Assembly (NCBI GenBank): GCA_018223125.1
Contig: JAAEZA010000032.1
Span: forward strand, 1-48,619
Origin: Paracoccaceae bacterium
GTDB lineage: Bacteria; Pseudomonadota; Alphaproteobacteria; Rhodobacterales; Rhodobacteraceae
Direction: 5' to 3'
DNA length: 48,619 bases
This document shows positions 5,478-15,745 of the stretch, one piece after another (the first letter of the stretch is position 1; each line of letters opens with the position of its first letter). The notes beneath the pieces were generated by a model. That model ran no database searches. It saw nothing but the letters and a program-made list of their open reading frames with translations, and was not told the origin of the DNA. The translations under genes were made by a program, and so were the position numbers.

Positions 5478-6830
5478 TCAACCCGCAGCAGAGATACCCG
5501 CGTCGATCGCGTTAAGGACCGTGTCGACTTCGGCTTCGCTGATAACCAGCCCCGGTGACAGCAGGATATTCGCGCCGGACACCCGCAGCATCGCGCCGTG
5601 TTCATAGGCAACTTTGGCAACTTTGGCACCAAAGTCCGGTCCCATTTGCGTCTTGCTCTCGCGGTCGGAGACAAATTCGATGGCTGTCATCAGGCCGTGG
5701 CCGCCGCGCACATCGCCGATAACGCTGTGCTTTTCTTTCAGACGCTGCACGCCCTCAAACATCTGTGTTCCGCGTGCCGCAGCGTTGCCCCGCACATCCA
5801 GACGCTGTGTTTCTTTCAGACAGGCAACCGCAGCAGCAGCCCCGACCGGATGACCGGAATAAGTGTAACCGTGCCCGATAGACCCTTCGGGTCCGGCTTT
5901 TTCGAAGACTTCGACCATGCTTTCCCCGATCATGCAAGCCCCGAACGGATAGTAGCCATTGGTGATCGCTTTAGCGGTACACATCATGTCAGGCTGCACC
6001 CCCCAATGGCGCGAACCGGACCAGTCGCCAGTGCGGCCAAAGGCGGTAATCACCTCATCCGCAATCATCAGGATACCGTGGCGGGAACAGATTTCACGCA
6101 TCCCCGGCATAAAGGTTTCATGGGGCACCATAATGCCCCCCGCACCAAGGATCGGCTCCATAATAAAGGCGGCAATGGTGTCCGGCCCCTGAAACGCGAT
6201 CTCGTCTTCGGCTGCCTGCAGGATCAGTTGCGCCAGTTTTGCAGGGTCTGATTCGTTGAACGGGTTGCGATAGGCATAAGGTGCCGGCAGGTGGCGGCAG
6301 CCGGGCAGAAGCGGTTCATAGGCGGTGCGGAACCGGTTGTTGCCATTAACGGATGCTCCCCCGAAGTGGGTGCCGTGATAGCCTTTTTTCAGGCTCAGGA
6401 ATTTGGTGCGCTGGGTATCACCGCGAACTTTGTGGTACTGACGGGCCAGACGCAGGCTGGTCTCAACGGAATCAGATCCCCCGCTGGTGAAAAACGCACG
6501 CGCCATGCCTTCCGGCCGGAAAAATTCCTGAAGCATATAGGACAGTTCGATCACAGCGTCATTGGATGTGCCTGCGAATGTGGAATAGTAAGGAAGCTGG
6601 TTCAACTGACTGGAAATTGCCTCTTTCACCACATCGCAGGAATAGCCGAGGTTCACGTTCCACAGGCCGCCAACCGCATCAATCGCTTCATGCCCGTCAA
6701 TGTCGGTGATTTTCACGCCCGCAGCACCCGTGATGATTACCGGCGGATTTTCTTGCTGAGCGCCCGGATGCGCCATCGGGTGCCACATATGCTTGGCGTT
6801 GTTTTCCTTCAGGAAGTTATCGTCTTTCAT
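5478..6830 (-). CDS. Class III PLP aminotransferase (omega-amine:pyruvate type)
   Basis: 450 residues from the ATG at 6830 (MKDDNFLKENN), preceded by AAAGGA eight bases upstream; an ATG 24 bases earlier lacks such a site. Fold-type I motifs are clear: HPMAHPGA and GLWNVNLGY in the N-terminal part, FTSGGSDSVET for cofactor phosphate binding, KKGYHGTHFGG, IADEVITAFGRTG (the PLP-ring Asp), the Schiff-base Lys in CTAKAITNGYYPFGA, and GYTYSGHPVG. This pattern fits diamine/omega-amino acid:pyruvate transaminases (SpuC, Tpa and beta-alanine relatives). The substrate is not readable from sequence. It follows the IclR gene by 54 bp on the same strand, so it is probably regulated with the divergent transporter operon. 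Confidence 0.85.
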   Translation of the reverse strand: MKDDNFLKENNAKHMWHPMAHPGAQQENPPVIITGAAGVKITDIDGHEAIDAVGGLWNVNLGYSCDVVKEAISSQLNQLPYYSTFAGTSNDAVIELSYMLQEFFRPEGMARAFFTSGGSDSVETSLRLARQYHKVRGDTQRTKFLSLKKGYHGTHFGGASVNGNNRFRTAYEPLLPGCRHLPAPYAYRNPFNESDPAKLAQLILQAAEDEIAFQGPDTIAAFIMEPILGAGGIMVPHETFMPGMREICSRHGILMIADEVITAFGRTGDWSGSRHWGVQPDMMCTAKAITNGYYPFGACMIGESMVEVFEKAGPEGSIGHGYTYSGHPVGAAAAVACLKETQRLDVRGNAAARGTQMFEGVQRLKEKHSVIGDVRGGHGLMTAIEFVSDRESKTQMGPDFGAKVAKVAYEHGAMLRVSGANILLSPGLVISEAEVDTVLNAIDAGISAAG

Positions 6831-6884
6831 CTTTCCGATCCTTTGATTGGTCAAAACCCGTTCGGGCAGTTTCAGGGGGCGGGC

Positions 6885-7658
6885 CTATTCGGCCGCGTCG
6901 GGCACCGGCTGACGCCGTGCCCCGTAAAGTCTGGAAATGGCCTGTGCCGCTTCGTTCAGCCCGAGCGCGATACAGTCGCGGACACGATCGTCAAAGCGGG
7001 ACATGGGCGTTGCCACTGCCACCGAACCGCAGACCCGGTCCGTGTGGTCGAAAACCGGAGCAGCCATCCCGACAACATCGGCTTCGAACGTTCCGAACAT
7101 CACAGAGTGGCCCGCAGCCTGCGCCTGCTCCACCAGTGCCAGAACTGATTCGCGCTCCAGCGGGGTCTTGTTTGTGATCCGTTCGAGCGCACGGGCCAGA
7201 ATCTCGTCCCGCTCCGGCGCATCAAGGCAGCTCAGGTAAGCGATACCGGAGGCCGTGGCATGAAAAGGCAGGATTTCAGCCGGATCAATATAGACGCGTG
7301 TCGCCCTGATGGACGTTTCCACGATGGCAATTTCGCTTAGTCCGTTTTTCTGGTGATGCGAAAGATGTGCCGTCTCTCCCGTTTTGGCCACAAGATCCGA
7401 CAGCACATTTTTTGCTGCGATTTCAATTGGATACGTCAGGTTTCGTACAGCAGCCAAACGGGTGACGGCAGGGCCGAGATGATAGGCTTTGCTGAGGGGA
7501 TCCTGTTCAAGAAAGCCTTGGGCCTCTAACGCGCTGAGATAGCGTTGCACGGTGGCTTTATCCCGTTTCAGCAGCCGTGCTGCCTCTGACAGGCCGACAG
7601 ACGGACGGGCCGTGTGAAACAGATCCAATATGCCCAAAGCCTTCTCTACGGTGCTCAT
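6885..7658 (-). CDS. IclR-family transcriptional regulator
   Basis: 257 residues. The N-terminal winged helix-turn-helix starts MSTVEKALGILDLF, with the recognition region SEAARLLKRDKATVQRYLSALEAQGFL (cited in parts) at about residues 24-50. The C-terminal effector domain includes AHLSHHQKNGLSEIAIVE, FHATASGIAYL and GMAAPVFDHT..CGSVAVATP. IclR proteins bind small metabolites in this domain and control adjacent catabolic genes. It is divergent from tctC across a 140-bp spacer that holds a near-perfect inverted repeat. The class III aminotransferase lies directly downstream. It is the likely local switch for the whole island; the effector is probably the imported substrate or its product. Confidence 0.93.
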   Translation of the reverse strand: MSTVEKALGILDLFHTARPSVGLSEAARLLKRDKATVQRYLSALEAQGFLEQDPLSKAYHLGPAVTRLAAVRNLTYPIEIAAKNVLSDLVAKTGETAHLSHHQKNGLSEIAIVETSIRATRVYIDPAEILPFHATASGIAYLSCLDAPERDEILARALERITNKTPLERESVLALVEQAQAAGHSVMFGTFEADVVGMAAPVFDHTDRVCGSVAVATPMSRFDDRVRDCIALGLNEAAQAISRLYGARRQPVPDAAE

Positions 7659-7703
7659 CTGTTACCCTATCGTTGCAAATGCATCGTTTTTTGTTTGACA
7701 CCG

Positions 7704-7732
7704 ATACTGCTTTGAAGCAATCATTATTTCAA
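7704..7732 (-). promoter_or_regulatory. Candidate iclR promoter
   Basis: On the minus strand TTGAAA (7732-7727) and CAGTAT (7709-7704) are separated by exactly 17 bp. The -35 box lies inside the left arm of the adjacent inverted repeat, so a protein bound there would block this promoter. That would give autoregulation, which is usual in the IclR family. Prediction only. Confidence 0.5.
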
Positions 7733-7752
7733 CCAACGGATTGAATAATGAT
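7720..7752. promoter_or_regulatory. Inverted repeat, candidate IclR operator
   Basis: ATCATTATTTCAA (7720-7732) and TTGAATAATGAT (7741-7752) are inverted copies, identical except for one extra T in the left arm, around an 8-bp centre. It sits between the divergent iclR and tctC genes, overlaps the candidate iclR -35 box, and lies just downstream of a TTGACA box (7695-7700) that could serve tctC. A long palindrome in this position is typical for an IclR dimer or tetramer. Confidence 0.65.
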
Positions 7753-7798
7753 CCGAGGTTATGACTTGGAACACAAGACATCGGACAGGGAGTCCCAT

Positions 7799-8740
7799 AT
7801 GAAACATTTCTTATCTGCAGCAGCTGCGGCTGTTTTGACAGCGGCCGCAATCGGCACGCCTGTGCTGGCCGAATACCCCGAAAAGCCCGTCAACTTCATC
7901 GTGCCGTGGCCTCCGGGTGATCTGGAAGACGTTCTGACCCGCATGATCGCCGAGGATTTCCAGAAAGAATACGGCGTTGCTGCAGCCGTGGTGAACAAAC
8001 CGGGCGGTGGCGGCGGCCCTTTCCCGGGGGCAATTGACGTGGCAACCGCCCCTGCGGACGGTTATACCATCGGCTCTTTCGTGATCGGCGTTCCGCTTAT
8101 CGGCCATGAGATCGGCATCGACGAACTGTCTCCTGCAAAATTCGATCCGCTCGGGATCTTCCTGACATATCCTTTTGTTCTGGCAACATCCGGTGATGCG
8201 CCGTTCAAAACGGTTGAGGAAATGGCCGAACATGCCAAGTCCAACGAACTCGCACTCGGCCACTTCGGCGCTCCACTGATCCCGACCAAAGTCTCGCTGG
8301 CCTATGCCAAAACAGCCGGATTTGAATGGGGGTCCGAAGCTGCATTTGATGCGCTGGATTGTAATACGCTGGCTTCCGGCGATGCGGATGTGATCAACAC
8401 GACATTGCAACTGGTTCTGCCCTGTCTTGACAGCATTACCGTCCTGGCTACCATGACAGACGAGCGCATTCCCCAGGTTCCGGACACACCGACTATGGGT
8501 GAAGTAAATGCCGATCTGGGTATCTCCCTGTGGAACGGCCTGTTCGTGACCAAGGACACTCCGCAAGACGTGCGTGAGAAAATTATCGCCGTTGCAAAGA
8601 AAACCATGATGTCCGAGCGTGCCCAGAAACTGGCCGCCGAAACGGGTGCAGGTGTCTACTGGCAGGATGCCGAAACATCTGCTGCGCGGATCGAAACAGA
8701 TGCCGGCAAACTGGGCACACTGAACGGTCTGGTAGAATAA
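7799..8740 (+). CDS. Tripartite tricarboxylate transporter substrate-binding protein (TctC/Bug family)
   Basis: Periplasmic binding protein of a TTT-type secondary transporter. 313 residues from the ATG at 7799, preceded by GGGAG with 6-base spacing; an in-frame ATG at 7748 would put 17 residues before the signal peptide and is rejected. The signal peptide is MKHFLSAAAAAVLTAAAIG with cleavage near LAE-YPEKPV. Family marks are YPEKPVNFIVPWPPGD, VVNKPGGGGGPFPGA, the APADGYTIGSF segment, and a C-terminal NGLFVTKDTPQDVREKI. Bug proteins bind carboxylates, amino acids or related small molecules, so the substrate cannot be read directly. It is first in the operon and separated from tctB by a terminator-like hairpin. 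Confidence 0.92.
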   Translation: MKHFLSAAAAAVLTAAAIGTPVLAEYPEKPVNFIVPWPPGDLEDVLTRMIAEDFQKEYGVAAAVVNKPGGGGGPFPGAIDVATAPADGYTIGSFVIGVPLIGHEIGIDELSPAKFDPLGIFLTYPFVLATSGDAPFKTVEEMAEHAKSNELALGHFGAPLIPTKVSLAYAKTAGFEWGSEAAFDALDCNTLASGDADVINTTLQLVLPCLDSITVLATMTDERIPQVPDTPTMGEVNADLGISLWNGLFVTKDTPQDVREKIIAVAKKTMMSERAQKLAAETGAGVYWQDAETSAARIETDAGKLGTLNGLVE

Positions 8741-8762
8741 TCCGACCCTGATCCACGATTAG

Positions 8763-8787
8763 AACCGGCCCAATCGGGCCGGTTTTT
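8763..8787 (+). terminator. Attenuator-like hairpin between tctC and tctB
   Basis: 9-bp perfect stem AACCGGCCC (8763-8771) / GGGCCGGTT (8776-8784), loop AATC, followed by TTTTT. It is a complete intrinsic terminator shape inside the operon. It probably lets the binding protein be made in excess over the membrane subunits, by partial termination or 3'-end protection. Confidence 0.75.
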
Positions 8788-8810
8788 CCAAACCTGCGAA
8801 GGAGCACGCA

Positions 8811-9329
8811 ATGAGCGCCGAACCGAAAAGAGCCAAACCCGGAGAGTTTCTGTTTGTAGGCCTGTTCTTCGCAATATCCGCATTTCTGCTGACGCAAATC
8901 GGCGATCAGGCCAAGTTTTCCGCCAAAGGGAAGCTTTTTGCGCAGCCCGCCTTCTGGCCCGGAGTCGGTGTGATCGGCATGGTCCTATTCACCGGCCTGC
9001 ACCTTCTGACCCACATGCGGCAACAGACCAAAGACGGTACCGGTGCCGAAATCGTGGTCTGGCTGCGTGCCTTTGAATTCGTTGGCTGGTTCATGGTTTA
9101 CGTGGTGCTGGTCCCGCGTCTGGGCTATCTGCCCAGCACGGTCCTCTTTACCTTCCTGCTTGCCCTTCGCATGGGCTATCGCAGTCCGGCGATGCTGGGC
9201 TGGGCCGCTACATCCGGTGTGGCGATTGTAGTGATCTTCAAGACACTTCTCGGCGTGAAAATCCCGGGCGGCGCGCTCTACGAGTATCTGCCCGACGGAT
9301 TGCGCAACTTCATGATTTTGAATTTCTGA
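8811..9329 (+). CDS. TTT transporter small membrane subunit (TctB family)
   Basis: 172 residues with about four hydrophobic spans (residues 14-30, 47-66, 85-102 and 120-150) and the family's poor sequence conservation. The start ATG follows GAAGGAG (spacing 7). Its position between a TctC-type binding protein and a TctA-type permease, ending one base before tctA, identifies it as TctB. It forms the membrane part of the transporter with TctA. Confidence 0.88.
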   Translation: MSAEPKRAKPGEFLFVGLFFAISAFLLTQIGDQAKFSAKGKLFAQPAFWPGVGVIGMVLFTGLHLLTHMRQQTKDGTGAEIVVWLRAFEFVGWFMVYVVLVPRLGYLPSTVLFTFLLALRMGYRSPAMLGWAATSGVAIVVIFKTLLGVKIPGGALYEYLPDGLRNFMILNF

Positions 9330-9330
9330 T

Positions 9331-10815
9331 ATGGACCTGCTTCTCTCCAGCTTTGACATCCTCGCCCGCTGGGATGTCCTCATCGCCCTTGTCGTCGGTT
9401 CAGTCGGAGGCGTCATCATCGGCGCCATTCCCGGTGTTGGTGCTGCGGTGGCGATTGCCATCCTGCTTCCGGCGACCTTTTCGCTTGATCCGATTGTCGG
9501 TCTGACCGCGCTGTTGGGGATTTACGGCAGTTCCATGTATGGCGGCGCGATCCCTGCTGTGCTGGTGAACACACCGGGTACAGCGGTCAACGCTCTGACC
9601 ACCTATGACGGCTATCCGATGACCCAAAGGGGAGAGGGCCGCCGCGCCCTGTCGCTGGCCTACTCTGCCAGCTTTTTCGGCGGCGTCTTTGCAGTGGTCT
9701 GCCTGATCTTCCTGTCACCCGTACTGGCCGCTATCGCCCCCCATTTCGGCAGCCGCGAGATTTTCCTCGCCTCGCTGCTCGGCATCATACTGGTGGTGCT
9801 GGCCCATCGCGGGCAGATCCTGATAGCGGGTGCGCTGGCCTGTTTCGGCATCTGGCTGAACACTATCGGGCTGGAGCCGATCCAGTATTCCAAACGCTAT
9901 ACCTTCGGACAAAGCTGGCTGTCCGGCGGCGTTGATCTGATCGTAGTGGTGCTGGGTCTGTTCGCCATTTCCCAAGCGATCGTCTTGCTGGTGGACAAGA
10001 ACCGCGCACCGCGCACCGGTACCCTGTCCGGCGATCTGTTTCAGGGCTTTAAGGAACTGTTCCGCTACAAACGGGTGGCCAGTGTCAGTTCCTCTTTCGG
10101 GGTGCTGATGGGAATGATCCCGGGCGTCGGAGAATTTACCGCACAGTTCATGTCCTACACCGCCGCAAGACGCGGTTCCAAAACGCCCGAGCAGTTCGGT
10201 AACGGCGCACCCGAAGGTTTGATCGCCTCTGAAGCCTCGAACAACGCCGTGCCCGCCGCTGCAATGATACCGCTGCTGGCCCTTGGCATACCGGGCGAGG
10301 CGCTGACCGCTATGATGCTGTCCGTGTTTTATGTGCATAATGTCGTGCCCGGCCCGCAGTTGTTCCAGAACCAGATGGATTTTGTTGTCGCACTATATAT
10401 CGCCCTTCTGGTGCTGAACGTGATGGTCGTGGCCTTCCTGCTGTGCTCTACAAACCTGCTGCTGAAGATCATCCAGATTCCGACCCGTTTTCTGGGCGTC
10501 ATCATCCTGACCCTGTCCTTTGTCGGCGTCTATTCCCTGCGCAATTCTACCATCGACTGCGCCATCGCTGCCGGTTTCGGTGTGTTCGGATTTATGCTGA
10601 AACGGCTCAACCTGCCGATCGTACCAATCATTCTGGGCATGGTTCTGGGTGGCATCATGGAAGCCAAGCTGCGCACCTCGATGATGCGGGTGAAATCCCC
10701 ACTCGATATGATCGACCGCCCCATCGCCTTTATCCTGTTTCTCCTGATCCTCGTCGTGCTTGGCTCTCATGTCTGGCGCATGTGGAAGGATCGCAATTCA
10801 ACGGAAGACCTATGA
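9331..10815 (+). CDS. TTT transporter large permease subunit (TctA family)
   Basis: 494 residues and about twelve membrane segments; the usual TctA length is near 500. The two diagnostic glycine-rich loops are present: GGVIIGAIPGVGAAVAIAIL near residues 27-46, and GVLMGMIPGVGEFTAQFMSY about residue 255, which mark the two homologous halves. NNAVPAAAMIPLLALGIPG is the other conserved stretch. It drives ion-coupled import of whatever TctC binds. Its stop codon overlaps the ATG of the aldehyde dehydrogenase gene (ATGA), so transport and metabolism are translationally coupled. Confidence 0.95.
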   Translation: MDLLLSSFDILARWDVLIALVVGSVGGVIIGAIPGVGAAVAIAILLPATFSLDPIVGLTALLGIYGSSMYGGAIPAVLVNTPGTAVNALTTYDGYPMTQRGEGRRALSLAYSASFFGGVFAVVCLIFLSPVLAAIAPHFGSREIFLASLLGIILVVLAHRGQILIAGALACFGIWLNTIGLEPIQYSKRYTFGQSWLSGGVDLIVVVLGLFAISQAIVLLVDKNRAPRTGTLSGDLFQGFKELFRYKRVASVSSSFGVLMGMIPGVGEFTAQFMSYTAARRGSKTPEQFGNGAPEGLIASEASNNAVPAAAMIPLLALGIPGEALTAMMLSVFYVHNVVPGPQLFQNQMDFVVALYIALLVLNVMVVAFLLCSTNLLLKIIQIPTRFLGVIILTLSFVGVYSLRNSTIDCAIAAGFGVFGFMLKRLNLPIVPIILGMVLGGIMEAKLRTSMMRVKSPLDMIDRPIAFILFLLILVVLGSHVWRMWKDRNSTEDL

Positions 10816-12296
10816 CCACACAATCGCAAATCGACGCGCTGCGCAGCGAAACCGTTGCCCCGCAGAGCCTGTTCATCGACAACGCCCCCGCTCAAGGCAC
10901 CGCCGAACCGATGGCCGTGACCTCTCCGATTGACGGGGCGCAACTGACCACAATTGCCAATGCCACTTCTGCCGAGGTGGATATGGCCGTGGCCTCGGCC
11001 CGCACGGCCTTTAACGACGGGCGCTGGTCCCGACTGGCCCCAGCGGCGCGCAAGAAGGTTCTTTTCGCCGTGGCCGATGCGATCGAGGCCGATGCGCTGG
11101 CGCTATCGGTGCTTGGCATCCGCGACAACGGCACGGAATTCGCCATGGCCTACAAGGCCGAGGCCGGTTCCGCCGCCGCAACCTTCCGCTACTATGCCGA
11201 AGCCATCGACAAGATACCGGGCGAAATTGCCCCCACCGCACCGGGCACACTGGGTCTGGTCCATCATGAACCTGTTGGTGTCGTTGGTGCGATTATTCCA
11301 TGGAATTTCCCCCTGATGATCGGCGCTTGGAAGATTGCCCCGGCCATTGCAGCGGGCAATTCCATCGTGGTGAAACCGGCCGAAACGGCATCCCTGTCGC
11401 TGTTGCGTCTGGCTGAAATCGCCGCTGGCGCCGGTCTGCCTGCGGGTGTGCTGAACGTCATCACCGGCGATGGCCGGATCGCGGGAGATGCACTGGCACG
11501 ATCCATGGATGTGGATGTGCTGGCCTTCACCGGATCAGGCATGACAGGACGCAAACTGCTGGAGGCTTCGGCCCAATCAAACCTGAAACGGGTCTATCTG
11601 GAACTGGGCGGGAAATCCCCGAATGTGGTCTTTGCCGATGCGCCCGATCTTGACAAGGCGGCAGCGGTTTCGGCGGCAGGCATCTTCCGCAACGCGGGCC
11701 AGGTCTGCGTGGCCGCATCCCGCCTGCTGGTCGAACGCAGCATCCATGATGATTTTGTGGCGGCGCTGAAAACCCATGCCGAAGCCTTTAAGGTTGGTGA
11801 TCCGCTGGACCTGAACACACAGATTGGCGCGGTCAATTCGGAAACCCAACTGGCCGGAAACCTGCGCCTGACAGAAGCCGCCATCAACGAGGGCGCGGAA
11901 TGCGTCACAGGCGGCAAGCGTATTCTTGAAGACACCGGCGGCAGCTATATGGCGCCCACCATCCTGTCCGGCGTGACATCGTCCAACACTGTGTTCCGCA
12001 AGGAAGTTTTCGGGCCGGTTCTGGCGGTAACGCCGTTTGAGACAGAGGAAGAAGCAGTACAGCTCGCCAACGACAGCGAATTGGGGCTGGCCGCAGGTGT
12101 CTGGACCGCCAATCTGTCCCGCGCCCACAATATGATCGGTGCAATCAATGCGGGCGTTGTCCATGTGAACACCTATGGCGGGCCGGACAATACCGTGCCG
12201 CTAACGGGGCATAAGCAATCGGGCAACGGTTCGGATAAATCGCTCCACGCGCTGGACAAATACACCAACCTGAAAACCGCATGGATTCAGCTATGA
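10812..12296 (+). CDS. NAD(P)+-dependent aldehyde dehydrogenase
   Basis: 494 residues from the ATG at 10812, which overlaps the tctA stop as ATGA; the longer open frame back to 10443 lies antiparallel to tctA meaning and is rejected. ALDH superfamily motifs are intact: PWNFPLMIGAWKIAPAIAAG, the Lys in VVKPAETASL, FTGSGMTGRKL, the general-base Glu in LELGGKSPNVVF, and the catalytic Cys in FRNAGQVCVAASR. The C-terminal NxxGGPDNTVPLTGHKQSG is like that of gamma-glutamyl-aminobutyraldehyde and betaine-aldehyde dehydrogenase relatives. In this operon it most likely oxidises the aldehyde released by the next gene's product. Confidence 0.93.
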   Translation: MTTQSQIDALRSETVAPQSLFIDNAPAQGTAEPMAVTSPIDGAQLTTIANATSAEVDMAVASARTAFNDGRWSRLAPAARKKVLFAVADAIEADALALSVLGIRDNGTEFAMAYKAEAGSAAATFRYYAEAIDKIPGEIAPTAPGTLGLVHHEPVGVVGAIIPWNFPLMIGAWKIAPAIAAGNSIVVKPAETASLSLLRLAEIAAGAGLPAGVLNVITGDGRIAGDALARSMDVDVLAFTGSGMTGRKLLEASAQSNLKRVYLELGGKSPNVVFADAPDLDKAAAVSAAGIFRNAGQVCVAASRLLVERSIHDDFVAALKTHAEAFKVGDPLDLNTQIGAVNSETQLAGNLRLTEAAINEGAECVTGGKRILEDTGGSYMAPTILSGVTSSNTVFRKEVFGPVLAVTPFETEEEAVQLANDSELGLAAGVWTANLSRAHNMIGAINAGVVHVNTYGGPDNTVPLTGHKQSGNGSDKSLHALDKYTNLKTAWIQL

Positions 12297-13573
12297 ACCC
12301 GCTCAGCAAATCTCTGCTCGCGCGCCGTGATGCAGTTCTCGGGCCGAATATGTCTACCTTCTACGAAGAACCCGTCCATCTGGTGAAAGGGGAAGGCGTT
12401 TGGGTCTGGGATCATGACGGCAAGAAGTACCTCGACTGCTACAACAATGTCCCCCATGTGGGGCATTGCCACCCCCATGTGGTCAAAGCCATGTGCGATC
12501 AGGCGGCGACGCTGAACACCCACACACGGTATCTGCACGAAGGTATTGTCGATTATGCGGAAAAGCTGACGGCGACCTTTGACGACCCGCTGAACACTGC
12601 GTTGCTGTGTTGCACGGGGTCAGAGGCCAATGACGTTGCCCTGCGCATGGCAGAGGCCGTGACCGGTAAAACGGGGATCATCGTCACCGATCACACCTAC
12701 CATGGCAACACCACGGCAGTTTCGGCCCTCTCCACCACCAACCCGTCGAAATTCGGCAAATCGGGCCACATCCGGCATGTACCGGCCCCCGACAGCTATC
12801 GTCCGCCCTCGGATGATCCTGCGGCGTATTTTGCCGAGCAGGTGAAGGCAAAGATTGCCGAACTGGAAGAAAGCGGTCACGGGTTTGCCGCCCTGCTGAT
12901 TGATCCGTTCTTTGCCAATGAAGGTTTTCCCGATCTGCCCGCCGGTTTCCTTGATGCGACGCTGAAAGCTGTCCACGGTGCCGGCGGCATCCTTATCGCG
13001 GATGAGGTCCAGCCCGGTTTCGGACGCACCGGAAGCCATATGTGGGGGCATCAGTATCAGGGGATCACACCGGATGTTGTGACCCTTGGCAAACCGATGG
13101 GCAACGGCCATCCGGTTGCAGGCGTGGTTACGACATCTGCAATCATGCACGAATTCCGCACAGCCTTCCGCTATTTCAACACCTTCGGCGGCAATCCAGT
13201 GTCCTGCGCCACCGCAATGGCGGTGTTAGAAGTGATTGAACAGGAAGGACTGATGCAACAGGCCGCGGATGTGGGGGCCTATGCCAAAGCCAGACTGCAA
13301 GAGCTTGCAGACAAACACCTGGTTATTGGCGATGTGCGGGGTCGGGGCATGTTCTTTGGCGCGGAACTGGTGACAGATCGCGCCACCAAAGCGCCTGCGA
13401 CGGAGTATCTGTTGCGGGTGATTGAGGAACTGCGCAATCGCGGTGTGCTACTGAACAAGATCGGCATCCACTACAACACACTGAAAATCAGACCGAACCT
13501 GCAATTTACCCGCGAAAACGCGGATCTGCTGGTAGAAACGCTGGATCAGGTGCTGACGGATGTGCAGCCATGA
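12293..13573 (+). CDS. Class III PLP enzyme resembling ethanolamine-phosphate / phosphohydroxylysine phospho-lyase
   Basis: 426 residues from the ATG at 12293 (ATGA overlap with the upstream stop); an in-frame ATG at 12281 is also possible. It is a fold-type I enzyme with KKYLDCYNNVPHVGHCHPHV, CCTGSEANDVALRMA, HTYHGNTTAVS, ADEVQPGFGRTGSHMWG and the Schiff-base Lys in LGKPMGNGHPVAG. The stretch YLDC-NNV-HVGHCHP and the DEVQ-GFGR signature are, from memory, those of animal AGXT2L1 (ETNPPL) and AGXT2L2 (PHYKPL), which eliminate phosphate and ammonia instead of transaminating. An adjoining small-molecule kinase gene supports the phospho-lyase reading. An ordinary transaminase of the AGXT2 type remains possible. 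Confidence 0.8.
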   Translation: MNPLSKSLLARRDAVLGPNMSTFYEEPVHLVKGEGVWVWDHDGKKYLDCYNNVPHVGHCHPHVVKAMCDQAATLNTHTRYLHEGIVDYAEKLTATFDDPLNTALLCCTGSEANDVALRMAEAVTGKTGIIVTDHTYHGNTTAVSALSTTNPSKFGKSGHIRHVPAPDSYRPPSDDPAAYFAEQVKAKIAELEESGHGFAALLIDPFFANEGFPDLPAGFLDATLKAVHGAGGILIADEVQPGFGRTGSHMWGHQYQGITPDVVTLGKPMGNGHPVAGVVTTSAIMHEFRTAFRYFNTFGGNPVSCATAMAVLEVIEQEGLMQQAADVGAYAKARLQELADKHLVIGDVRGRGMFFGAELVTDRATKAPATEYLLRVIEELRNRGVLLNKIGIHYNTLKIRPNLQFTRENADLLVETLDQVLTDVQP

Positions 13574-14517
13574 CACAGACGCTTGCGCAACAGGCAATCG
13601 GCCGCTGGGATGTTGAAACACTTTCTGTCGAACTGGTGGCCGAACGGGAAAACCGCGTCTACCGCGTGACCACACCTGATGCGGTCTACGCCCTGCGGCA
13701 TCACCGCAGCGGCTATCGCACAGACGCAGAGCTGCGTTCGGAACTGGCGTGGATGGACGCGCTTGACGGGGCCGGACTTTCGCTGCCCCGCCCGATAGCC
13801 GGTTCGGATGGTACCCATCTGCAAGTGCTGGAGGGCGCGCAGTTCGACCTGCTGACATGGTTGCCCGGCCACCAGATGGGCGCCTACGGAACGCCACTTG
13901 ATCTGGATGACCCGGAAGGTACGTTTTACAAGCTTGGACAGGCCATGGCGCGGATGCATGGGGCCTCTGATGCGTGGACACCGCCACAGGGATTCACCCG
14001 TCCGGCTTGGGATGCCGAAGGTCTGATCGGTGAATCCCCGCTTTGGGGGCGGTTCTGGGACAATCCGACCCTGACGGCAGAGCAAAAAACGCTGCTTGAA
14101 CACTTTCGCGCGAAGGCTGCAACGGCATTGGCAGAGGGGCAGCATGATTTCGGCCTGATCCACGCCGACCTGCTGCGCGAGAATATCCTGATCGACGGGG
14201 ACGACCTGCATCTGATCGACTTTGACGATTGCGGCCACGGTTTTCGGCTGTTTGAACTGGCTACTACGATTTTCCGCATCCGCGACGAAAGCAACGCCGG
14301 TGAATTGCAAGCTGCGCTGATCGACGGCTACCAGTCCGAACGCGCCCTCAACATCACACACCTGCCCCTGTTCATCGCCCTGCGGGCCTGTACATATGTT
14401 GGCTGGATCGTGACGCGGATGGAACTGGAAGGCGCAGAAGCACGCAATGCGCGCAATATCAAAGCCGCAACCCAAGTGGTTGCAAACTGGCTGAATTCGG
14501 GAGGCACCCATGTCTGA
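13570..14517 (+). CDS. APH-fold small-molecule kinase (hydroxylysine kinase / homoserine kinase II-like)
   Basis: 315 residues; the ATG at 13570 overlaps the previous stop as ATGA. Aminoglycoside phosphotransferase fold: an N-lobe with YRVTTPDAVYALRHHRSGYR, hinge region LEGAQFDLLTWLPGHQMG, catalytic loop LIHADLLRENILIDGD (Asp and Asn of HxDxxxxN), and the metal-binding Asp in HLIDFDDCGHGFRLFEL. The family includes HYKK (AGPHD1), choline/ethanolamine kinases and ThrB2. Coupling to an AGXT2L-like enzyme mirrors the human HYKK plus PHYKPL pair and the bacterial amino-alcohol kinase plus phospho-lyase route. The likely role is to phosphorylate a hydroxyl group next to an amine. The substrate is not determined. 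Confidence 0.8.
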   Translation: MTQTLAQQAIGRWDVETLSVELVAERENRVYRVTTPDAVYALRHHRSGYRTDAELRSELAWMDALDGAGLSLPRPIAGSDGTHLQVLEGAQFDLLTWLPGHQMGAYGTPLDLDDPEGTFYKLGQAMARMHGASDAWTPPQGFTRPAWDAEGLIGESPLWGRFWDNPTLTAEQKTLLEHFRAKAATALAEGQHDFGLIHADLLRENILIDGDDLHLIDFDDCGHGFRLFELATTIFRIRDESNAGELQAALIDGYQSERALNITHLPLFIALRACTYVGWIVTRMELEGAEARNARNIKAATQVVANWLNSGGTHV

Positions 14518-15745
14518 CAAGACTATTCTAATCGTTGGCACCTATGACACGAAAGACGACGAGTTGAACTATATGGCAGAACGGATCACCGCGATGGGCG
14601 GCGGCGTTCTGACAATGGATGTCAGCGTTCTGGGCGACCCGTCAGAGCCTTGCGATCACTCCAAACATGCCGTGGCCGAGGCCGCCGGAAGTTCTATCAA
14701 GGCGGCGATCGACTCTGGCGATGAAAACACCGCCATGCAGATCATGGCGCGGGGCGCATCCCAGCTTGCAGCGCATCTTTACCGTCAGGGCGCGTTTGAC
14801 GGTGTGGTCATTCTGGGCGGCACGATGGGCACGGATCTGGCGCTGGATGTGTGTCAGGCCCTGCCCATGGGCGTGCCGAAATACGTTGTGTCCACGGTCT
14901 CTTTTTCCCCGATCATCCCGCCGGAACGCCTGTCAGCGGACATCCAGATGATCCTTTGGGCGGGGGGGCTCTACGGCCTCAACTCTGTCTGCAAAGCCTC
15001 CCTGTCGCAAGCAGCCGGTGCCGTTCTGGGGGCGGCCCGTGCAGTAGAGCCGCCAACTGCGGACCGGCCCATCGTCGGGATGACATCGCTCGGGTCGTCC
15101 TGCCTGAAATACATGAAACTGCTGAAACCCGCTTTGGAACAACGGGGCTATGAGGTTGCCATTTTCCATGCCACCGGCATGGGCGGCATGGCCTTTGAAT
15201 CCCTTGCTGCGCAGGGGCGGTTCTGTTGCGTAATGGATTTCGGCCTGTCGGAACTTGGCAATCTGATAGCCGGATCCGTCGTCAGCAGTGGCAGCCAGCG
15301 GATGCTGAGCGCAGGGCAGGCTGGCATCCCGCAAATCGTGGCACCCGGCTGTTTCGATCTGGTGGATTTCGCAGGCTGGCAGGAGATCCCCGAAAGCTAT
15401 CGAGATCGCCCGTTTCATGAACACAACCGCCTGATCAAATCATCCGCCTTCAATGCCGACGAACGCCGCGAATCCGCCCGCGAAGTGGCAAAACGGCTGG
15501 CGCAAGCTACAGCGCCGACCCATTTCATCATGCCGCTGCACGGGGTTGAAGAATGGGACAGGGAAGGTGATGTCGCCCATGATCCCGAAGGGCTGGCCGC
15601 GTTTACAGATGAAGCCCGCAAGGTGATGACTGATCCCATCGGGTATTCCGAGGTGGACGCCCATATCAACGATCAGGCCTTTGCCGATAAAGCGTTGGAA
15701 ATCTTTGACGCATGGGTGGCCGACGGAACGATCCGCAAGGGCTGA
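14510..15745 (+). CDS. Tm-1-like / UPF0261 family protein
   Basis: 411 residues; the start overlaps the kinase gene by 8 bp and follows GGGAGG. It begins KTILIVGTYDTKDDELNYMA and contains GVVILGGTMGTDLALDVCQALPMG, KYVVSTVSFSP, TSLGSSCLKYMKLLKPALEQ (cited in part), FHATGMGGMAFESLAAQG, AGIPQIVAPGCFDLVDF and FIMPLHGVEEWDREG. This is the Tm-1-like ATP-binding family (UPF0261), named after the tomato virus-resistance protein. Bacterial and fungal members are widespread but have no established reaction. As last gene of the operon it is tightly co-expressed with the kinase and phospho-lyase-like enzyme, which suggests a metabolic role on the same substrate or a product. Confidence 0.9.
   Translation: MSDKTILIVGTYDTKDDELNYMAERITAMGGGVLTMDVSVLGDPSEPCDHSKHAVAEAAGSSIKAAIDSGDENTAMQIMARGASQLAAHLYRQGAFDGVVILGGTMGTDLALDVCQALPMGVPKYVVSTVSFSPIIPPERLSADIQMILWAGGLYGLNSVCKASLSQAAGAVLGAARAVEPPTADRPIVGMTSLGSSCLKYMKLLKPALEQRGYEVAIFHATGMGGMAFESLAAQGRFCCVMDFGLSELGNLIAGSVVSSGSQRMLSAGQAGIPQIVAPGCFDLVDFAGWQEIPESYRDRPFHEHNRLIKSSAFNADERRESAREVAKRLAQATAPTHFIMPLHGVEEWDREGDVAHDPEGLAAFTDEARKVMTDPIGYSEVDAHINDQAFADKALEIFDAWVADGTIRKG

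What the first reader, a model, noticed from the sequence alone, without database searches (positions are those of the whole stretch)
5478..15745. Candidate amino-alcohol (or hydroxylysine-like) catabolic system: TTT transporter + kinase + phospho-lyase + aldehyde dehydrogenase + Tm-1-like protein under IclR control
Seen: tctC-tctB-tctA, ALDH, an AGXT2L-like PLP enzyme, an APH-fold kinase and a UPF0261 protein on one strand, with ATGA or 8-bp overlaps from tctA to the end, and IclR plus a second class III aminotransferase divergent. Known: human HYKK + PHYKPL (hydroxylysine) and ETNPPL (phosphoethanolamine), and the bacterial aminopropanol/ethanolamine kinase plus phospho-lyase route, all give an aldehyde, ammonia and phosphate; an aldehyde dehydrogenase then finishes. 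Inference: this operon imports a hydroxylated amine or amino acid, phosphorylates it, eliminates phosphate and ammonia, and oxidises the aldehyde. A dedicated TTT transporter with this chemistry plus a Tm-1-like member is, to my knowledge, not described.
Basis: partly seen in the sequence, partly recalled or inferred. Interest (0 to 1): 0.82.

Follow-up and report, generated by a model that had tools for sequence, protein, structure and literature searches.

The report
Bacterial pathway for octopamine-like amines
A marine bacterium carries a gene cluster that probably imports ring-bearing amines related to octopamine, noradrenaline, tyramine or dopamine and breaks them down, using phosphate tagging followed by elimination for the hydroxylated ones, and it ties a protein family of unknown role (UPF0261/Tm-1-like) to this kind of breakdown.

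Summary
The genes are as described. The PLP enzyme belongs with phospho-lyases; the kinase's nearest solved relative is 6ef6, recalled to be aminopropanol kinase. The chemistry guess stands; the substrate guess does not. Relatives in Rhodobacterales, rhizobia, Sphingobium and an actinobacterium lie beside or inside homoprotocatechuate (hpa) genes. Of 295 family genomes, 35 of 39 with the closer kinase encode HpaD against 68 of 256 others; HpaD lies within 20 kb in 14 of 39, against 1 of 88 genomes with a more distant kinase. Solved phospho-lyase 5g4i is encoded beside phenylacetaldehyde dehydrogenase and hpa genes. UPF0261 tracks HpaD even without the closer kinase: transaminase, IclR, TctCBA, ALDH and UPF0261 form a core often lacking kinase and lyase, which in most relatives lie between ALDH and UPF0261. 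Best reading: an arylethylamine catabolic core plus a module turning beta-hydroxylated arylethylamines into arylacetaldehydes, then arylacetates for the hpa pathway. The own genome has hpaFEDGHI on another contig but no HpaB. Substrates and UPF0261's role are inferred; nothing was assayed.

The parts
5478..6854 (-). AT2: class III omega-transaminase (PRK07481), core member; inferred to deaminate non-hydroxylated arylethylamines to arylacetaldehydes
   Evidence: NF005683 712 bits over cut-off 575; best solved relative 5lh9 omega transaminase, 418 bits; AKAITNGY motif at residue 294
6885..7658 (-). IclR-family regulator, divergent
   Evidence: PF09339, PF01614 over cut-off
7695..7724 (+). promoter-like hexamers before tctC
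   Evidence: TTGACA-18-AATCAT; a consensus match only (3 found, 1.0 expected in that stretch); TTGACA also seen in relatives printed
7738..7754 (.). operator-like imperfect palindrome GGATTGAATAATGATCC, candidate IclR site
   Evidence: read; L093 carries GGTTCAAATATTGAACC; not tested against chance
7799..8740 (+). TctC periplasmic binding protein with acidic loop PPGDLED
   Evidence: PF03401; GDLED in 46 of 48 cluster TctC; BugD reads AAGGPTD there
8811..9329 (+). TctB small membrane subunit
   Evidence: PF07331
9331..10815 (+). TctA large membrane subunit
   Evidence: PF01970 432 bits
10812..12296 (+). aldehyde dehydrogenase (KauB/PuuC-like); inferred to oxidise an arylacetaldehyde
   Evidence: PF00171; best solved relatives 6b4r KauB and 5iuu; LELGGK at 263 and GQVC at 296
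12293..13573 (+). PLP-dependent phospho-lyase (AGXT2L/ETNPPL-like); lysine at residue 271 of the 430-aa form that starts at 12281
   Evidence: 5g4i 416 bits, ETNPPL 375, next family 213; parted from DGD and AT2 by a 99* branch
13570..14517 (+). APH-fold kinase; HADLLREN at 198, IDFDD at 216
   Evidence: PF01636; best solved relative 6ef6, 4e-36; motifs
14510..15745 (+). UPF0261 / Tm-1-like protein, role unknown, tracks HpaD
   Evidence: NF002676 626 bits over cut-off 556; co-occurrence

Best explanation
The region is an aromatic-amine (arylethylamine) uptake and breakdown system with two entry routes to one aldehyde. Core, inferred: TctCBA imports an arylethylamine; AT2 transaminates non-hydroxylated amines (tyramine, dopamine or phenethylamine type) to an arylacetaldehyde; ALDH oxidises it to an arylacetate, which enters homoprotocatechuate (hpa) meta-cleavage encoded elsewhere in the genome; IclR senses substrate or intermediate. 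Added module: the APH-fold kinase phosphorylates the beta-hydroxyl of a beta-hydroxylated arylethylamine (octopamine, noradrenaline or phenylethanolamine type) and the PLP phospho-lyase eliminates phosphate and then ammonia, giving the same arylacetaldehyde. Plain transamination of such an amine would give a mandelaldehyde, which does not lead to the hpa route; that is the proposed reason for the module. Shown here: gene content, family placement, linkage and co-occurrence with hpa genes, position of the module. Inferred: substrates, direction of each step, regulation. The role of UPF0261 is unknown; I claim only that it belongs to this pathway.
For: Phospho-lyase placement; kinase kinship to 6ef6. 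Any HpaD over cut-off (two models) in 35 of 39 genomes with the closer kinase vs 68 of 256 others, Fisher p 3e-14; within 20 kb in 14 of 39, against 1 of 88 genomes with a more distant kinase. Kinase and lyase among hpa genes in L114, L132, L136. 9 Mesorhizobium loci beside hpa genes, 6-8 genes seen in 8 of them. Of 16 annotated plasmid neighbourhoods picked by hand from 91 records, 9 have hpa enzymes and 1 hpaR only, including Sphingobium and Paenarthrobacter, where the solved phospho-lyase 5g4i (420 of 420 residues) lies beside a homologous kinase, a phenylacetaldehyde dehydrogenase and hpaE/H/I. PF00282 pyridoxal-dependent decarboxylase genes (aromatic type is my label) near L093, L097, L098, L132. 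An APC permease stands in place of TTT in four annotated rhizobial and nine Mesorhizobium clusters and acidic residues occupy the TctC loop: both fit an amine ligand. UPF0261 with HpaD in 89 of 100 genomes, p 3e-47. Own genome has hpaFEDGHI.
Against: No enzyme assay. hpa genes are not in the window; in the own genome they lie on another contig. HpaB is absent from the own genome and from 38 of 39 closer-kinase genomes, so either the ring is already 3,4-dihydroxylated or another hydroxylase acts. 4 of 39 closer-kinase genomes have no HpaD by either model, and in 25 of 39 it is not seen within 20 kb (many contigs are short). One genome of the more distant kinase class, G178, has HpaD 5.7 kb away. 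6 of 16 annotated plasmid neighbourhoods show no hpa gene. Of 33 fuller named clusters, 20 show no hpa gene in the stretch fetched. The ALDH's best solved relative is KauB, not a phenylacetaldehyde dehydrogenase. Three Rhizobiales loci (L012, L025, L030) use TTT, so the APC swap is not general. TTT systems are better known for carboxylates (recalled). The kinase classes were split at 226 bits after seeing the list, and genomes are related by descent, so p values overstate independence.
Confidence: 0.65

Rival explanations
1. The kinase/phospho-lyase pair acts on a small aliphatic amino alcohol (ethanolamine, 1-amino-2-propanol), giving acetaldehyde or propanal for the ALDH.
For: Phospho-lyase kin act on phosphoethanolamine (ETNPPL, 6tor); the kinase resembles 6ef6, recalled to be an aminopropanol kinase.
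Against: hpa linkage; no Eut or microcompartment gene annotated in the eight neighbourhoods.
Confidence: 0.12
2. The imported compound is an aromatic beta-hydroxy amino acid (beta-hydroxytyrosine, phenylserine or droxidopa type), decarboxylated before the kinase acts; this would suit a TTT carboxylate carrier.
For: PF00282 decarboxylase genes near some clusters.
Against: No decarboxylase gene in the window cluster; acidic TctC loop and APC replacement fit an amine better.
Confidence: 0.1
3. Hydroxylysine or another hydroxylated aliphatic amino acid is the substrate, as in human HYKK + PHYKPL.
For: Same enzyme classes; the phospho-lyase family includes PHYKPL (recalled).
Against: hpa linkage; the closest solved relative, 5g4i, is encoded beside a phenylacetaldehyde dehydrogenase.
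Confidence: 0.05
4. The PLP enzyme is an ordinary transaminase and the kinase a homoserine-type kinase; the cluster is a loose collection.
For: Both families are broad; some public records call the kinase homoserine kinase.
Against: Phospho-lyase clade; homoserine kinase model 70 bits against cut-off 271; conserved pairing.
Confidence: 0.04

Closest known systems
ETNPPL / PHYKPL phospho-lyases with HYKK-type kinase (animals)
   Same: Enzyme classes and inferred reaction: phosphorylate an amino alcohol, eliminate phosphate and ammonia, oxidise the aldehyde
   Different: Inferred aromatic substrate, bacterial operon with TTT transporter, hpa linkage, UPF0261
Paenarthrobacter aurescens pTC2 phospho-lyase 5g4i (AAur_pTC20101)
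   Same: Homologous lyase (45% identity) near a homologous kinase (36%) and an ALDH
   Different: Amino acid permease instead of TTT; no UPF0261 and no second class III aminotransferase listed in the 25 kb read (the gene table is incomplete by the tool's own word)
Kinase / aminotransferase cluster of the 1-amino-2-propanol microcompartment (PMC6620236, passages read)
   Same: APH-family kinase plus aminotransferase-type enzyme plus aldehyde dehydrogenase
   Different: Shell proteins there, none here; that paper proposed transamination, not elimination
4-hydroxyphenylacetate / homoprotocatechuate pathway (hpaRBCDEFGHI)
   Same: Inferred sink for the arylacetate; genes beside many relatives and, without hpaB, in the own genome
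   Different: The window cluster is an upstream funnel, not the meta pathway itself
Octopamine and synephrine dehydratase activities, EC 4.2.1.87/88 (recalled, no call)
   Same: Net result: arylethanolamine to arylacetaldehyde plus amine
   Different: Recalled as ATP-free hydro-lyases without known genes; whether any is really kinase plus lyase is untested
PbfA, (R)-1-hydroxy-2-aminoethylphosphonate ammonia-lyase (PMC8154272, passages read)
   Same: Class III PLP lyase acting on a beta-hydroxy amine
   Different: Window lyase scores 220 bits against the PbfA cut-off 525; water, not phosphate, leaves in PbfA

Membership tests
AGXT2L/ETNPPL-type phospho-lyase | closer to known phospho-lyases than to transaminases or decarboxylase | tested here: met
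   416 and 375 bits vs 213 for the next family; 99* branch from DGD and AT2, with long-branch warnings from the tool
AGXT2L/ETNPPL-type phospho-lyase | PLP lysine in GKPM[GA]NGHP (motif read from the alignments) | tested here: met
   GKPMGNGHP in the window; 121 of 138 sequences carry GKPMANGHP or GKPMGNGHP, 5 other variants, 12 no match to the pattern
AGXT2L/ETNPPL-type phospho-lyase | releases phosphate from a phospho-amine | not testable with these tools
   needs purified enzyme
APH-fold small-molecule kinase | APH fold with HxDxxxxN and DFD-type motifs | tested here: met
   PF01636; motifs in the window; both in 143 of 158 kinases extracted
APH-fold small-molecule kinase | phosphorylates an amino alcohol | not testable with these tools
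   needs purified enzyme
Homoserine kinase | score above curated cut-off | tested here: not met
   NF003558 70 bits vs 271
PRK06148 kinase-peptidase-lyase fusion | single fused chain over cut-off | tested here: not met
   window lyase 520 bits vs 1128, C-terminal part only; a true fusion, 1449 bits, is elsewhere in the own genome
PbfA ammonia-lyase | score above curated cut-off | tested here: not met
   220 bits vs 525
Tripartite tricarboxylate (TTT) transporter | TctA, TctB and TctC present and over cut-off | tested here: met
Tripartite tricarboxylate (TTT) transporter | carries a carboxylate | not testable with these tools
   acidic loop GDLED argues for another ligand
UPF0261 (PRK02399 group 4) | score above curated cut-off | tested here: met
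   NF002676 626 vs 556
Homoprotocatechuate (hpa) pathway in the own genome | HpaD, HpaE, HpaH over cut-off | tested here: met
   411/321, 763/638, 379/352 bits; HpaI 362 just under 369 and the HpaG C-terminal model 156 under 276
Homoprotocatechuate (hpa) pathway in the own genome | HpaB 4-hydroxyphenylacetate 3-hydroxylase | tested here: not met
   no PF03241 match

The most novel reading that the evidence does not exclude
A widespread bacterial route degrades neurotransmitter-type beta-hydroxy arylethylamines (octopamine, noradrenaline) by ATP-dependent phosphorylation and PLP-driven elimination; the solved phospho-lyase 5g4i is one of its enzymes; and UPF0261/Tm-1-like proteins of this subgroup are a dedicated part of arylethylamine-to-homoprotocatechuate catabolism, the first pathway assignment I know of for that family.
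Probability: 0.5. Interest if true: 0.8.

Novelty: new variant of a known kind. Interest (0 to 1): 0.68.

Why it matters
If right, it supplies genes for the breakdown of octopamine/noradrenaline-type amines in marine and plant-associated bacteria, gives a likely natural substrate class for a phospho-lyase that already has a crystal structure, and gives UPF0261, a family whose fused tomato member Tm-1 blocks a virus (abstract start), a testable metabolic setting. Bacteria living on invertebrates, algae and legumes could use such amines as food or alter host signals (inference).

Tried and rejected
Small amino alcohol and hydroxylysine readings were set aside on the hpa linkage. Homoserine kinase, PbfA and the PRK06148 fusion were rejected as memberships. 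A generic link of the kinase family to hpa was tested and not found: genomes with only the more distant kinase have HpaD in 19 of 84, those with neither kinase in 49 of 172, p 0.37. HpaB as the missing hydroxylase was rejected for this genome; a P450 found near 6 relatives has only two weak matches, 24% and 35% identity, in the own genome. Residues separating the lyases of the two classes (110, 173, 297, 350, 382) were listed but gave no clear substrate clue. A GKPMGNGHP-only count looked poor (36 of 74) because many members read GKPMANGHP. Paper searches: octopamine/synephrine dehydratase, octopamine hydrolyase or hydro-lyase, octopamine or phenylethanolamine kinase gave 0 papers; phospholyase with Arthrobacter aurescens and transaminase gave 0; (20 shown of 23, 20 of 392, 7 of 7, 20 of 27) listed nothing that, by title and abstract start, describes this gene set. 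Subscription journals are not held, so this is weak evidence of absence. UPF0261 occurs in 5 held papers (listing only). Structure prediction and fold search were not used.

Rows dropped, chosen or mislabelled: the window duplicates L083 and L105 were left out, sequences over 480 residues were cut to their last 440, and treekit dropped L023_A and L121_A; labels A/B were set by the gene content of the fetched stretch, so short stretches (e.g. L084, L085) can be mislabelled B, and L157, labelled A, lies in the B clade. 40 UPF0261 loci were fetched from 40 of the 63 genomes outside the closer-kinase set; five of them (G175, G123, G271, G227, G059) were picked because HpaD was known to be near. 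The 16 annotated plasmid neighbourhoods were chosen by hand from 91 records.
Full report
OBSERVATION. All nine genes exist at the stated coordinates, with the stated overlaps, and match their families. The phospho-lyase start at 12293 gives an ATGA overlap with ALDH; a start at 12281 is also open. The TctC start is more likely 7799 than 7748.

CHEMISTRY. Against solved structures the PLP enzyme scores 416 bits to 5g4i (a phospho-lyase) and 375 to ETNPPL (6tor); the next family, dialkylglycine decarboxylase, scores 213. In a tree of 140 rows the window enzyme, 5g4i, ETNPPL and the lyase part of the own genome's PRK06148 fusion (identified) lie on one side of a 99* branch, with dialkylglycine decarboxylase and the divergent transaminase on the other; the tool warns of long branches. 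The kinase's best solved relative is 6ef6 at 4e-36, labelled aminoglycoside phosphotransferase; I recall it as the (S)-1-amino-2-propanol kinase of a mycobacterial microcompartment. The homoserine kinase model is far from its cut-off. The divergent aminotransferase is closest to an omega-transaminase (5lh9, 418 bits). The ALDH is closest to KauB; 5iuu, next, I recall as an indole-acetaldehyde dehydrogenase.

SUBSTRATE CLUE. Annotated neighbourhoods of relatives show hpa genes near the cluster: Ruegeria AD91A, R. conchae with hpaR only, Agrobacterium leguminum, Rhizobium CIAT894, R. leguminosarum, Pseudosulfitobacter, Paenarthrobacter aurescens pTC2, Rhizobium C104 and R. binae, Sphingobium TomTYG72. 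Those without: Shinella (a PF00282-type decarboxylase and an ALDH are present), Gemmobacter, Pseudomonas MPC6 (whose PLP enzyme is only 26% identical), Sphingobium TomTYG74 near a record end, Acinetobacter, A. fabrum C58. These 16 were picked by hand from 91 records. The pTC2 aminotransferase is 5g4i itself: the 420-residue segment matches exactly.

STATISTICS. In 295 genomes of the family, HpaD is over cut-off in 92 by one model and in 36 by a second one, 103 together. Kinase matches were split at 226 bits, after seeing the list: 39 genomes above (own genome included), 84 with only weaker ones, 172 with none. In three stretches the pair lies among hpa genes: L114 (TctA, ALDH, UPF0261, hpaFEDGH, lyase, kinase on one strand), L136 (hpaHGDEF flush with kinase and lyase) and L132 (hpaI on one side, hpaH about 4.4 kb off on the other). 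In the 80 named loci, 33 have the fuller cluster, 13 of them with at least two hpa genes (9 of these 13 are Mesorhizobium) and 20 with none in the stretch; 23 have the pair only, 1 with hpa genes; 24 others have none. Relatedness makes the p values optimistic.

A CORE AND A MODULE. UPF0261 close to the window's (E up to 1e-100) occurs in 100 of 295 genomes; 89 of them have HpaD, p 3e-47; outside the 39 closer-kinase genomes it is 54 of 63, p 1e-32 (first model alone 79 of 100 and 49 of 63). Of 40 such loci fetched outside that set (five of them chosen because HpaD was near), none has the lyase (40% identity or more) or the kinase (30% or more) in the stretch; 29 have ALDH, 28 the transaminase, 25 TctA, 20 all three, and 7 at least two hpa genes, five of these being the five chosen ones. 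In those 20, ALDH and UPF0261 are 0-107 bp apart. In the 39 stretches around the closer kinases (38 genomes), 23 have ALDH, UPF0261 and lyase, and the lyase lies between ALDH and UPF0261 in 15 (13 of them all on one strand), outside in 8. So transaminase + IclR + TctCBA + ALDH + UPF0261 reads as the core and kinase + lyase as an added module. In four annotated rhizobial and nine Mesorhizobium clusters an APC permease stands where TctCBA stands elsewhere; three Rhizobiales loci keep TTT (L012, L025, L030). A TctC loop reads PPGDLED in 46 of 48 cluster members and GDLED in 22 of 25 core-only members, where BugD reads AAGGPTD; that this loop touches the ligand is recalled, and a ligand with a positive head group is my inference.

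MODEL. Non-hydroxylated arylethylamines are transaminated; beta-hydroxylated ones are phosphorylated and undergo elimination; both give an arylacetaldehyde, then an arylacetate for HpaD and following enzymes. The own genome carries hpaFEDGHI on another contig. Caveat: HpaB is absent from it and from 38 of 39 closer-kinase genomes; among HpaD genomes it is 1 of 35 versus 14 of 68, p 0.017. Either the amines are already catechols (dopamine, noradrenaline) or another hydroxylase acts. Rhizobial clusters do have hpaB and hpaC next door in several cases.

NOVELTY. Kinase plus phospho-lyase routes are known; an aromatic substrate, the hpa link, the natural setting of 5g4i and the pathway link of UPF0261 are, as far as my searches of an open library show, not described there. 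Older literature on bacterial octopamine and synephrine breakdown exists (recalled) and could not be read. No activity has been measured here.

Noticed in passing
L066 10365, L039 12941, L149 5605, L131 4823, L126 17900, L120 5664: A cytochrome P450 gene lies about 1.7-7.3 kb from the phospho-lyase in six relatives (three of them 97% alike), with a glutamine-synthetase-like gene also found in five of these six; possibly an extra entry step such as ring hydroxylation or N-demethylation.
   Followed up: partly
L031, L033-L038, L040, L082, L095-L098 and some Rhodobacterales (L008, L015, L020, L056, L129): A HAD-IA hydrolase gene, 60% or more identical to the Rhizobium CIAT894 copy, accompanies the cluster; no such gene lies between AT2 and IclR in the window. 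It may clean up wrongly phosphorylated compounds.
   Followed up: no
e.g. L047, L048, L162: A second class of phospho-lyase + kinase pair without transporter or ALDH nearby, in recurring surroundings that include a nicotinate phosphoribosyltransferase gene (19 of 116 loci) and an isochorismatase-fold gene (18 of 116), none of these in fuller clusters; substrate unknown.
   Followed up: partly
G000:C43, L110 7016-9106: The own genome's second UPF0261 gene (30% identity) sits beside a PEP_hydrolase-like gene (PF09370) and ABC transporter genes, unlike the window copy.
   Followed up: partly
G000:C33, L111 6514-9594: The own genome also encodes a true PRK06148 fusion of kinase and lyase type (1026 aa, 1449 bits over cut-off 1128), 39% identical to the window lyase over that part.
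   Followed up: partly
L143: A diverged version: TctC and TctA only 44-46% identical, TctC loop GDVDD, lyase 69%, kinase 44%; perhaps a different amine.
   Followed up: no
window 7650-7799 and relatives, 43 intergenic regions in all: Between IclR and TctC many relatives share TTGACAGA/TCTGTCAA (24 of 43 regions hold it on either strand) and, in those printed, a GGTTC-N7-GAACC-like palindrome.
   Followed up: partly
TIGR02295 and TIGR02298 across 295 genomes: Two unrelated HpaD types occur; 25 of the 103 HpaD genomes carry both, often side by side.
   Followed up: partly
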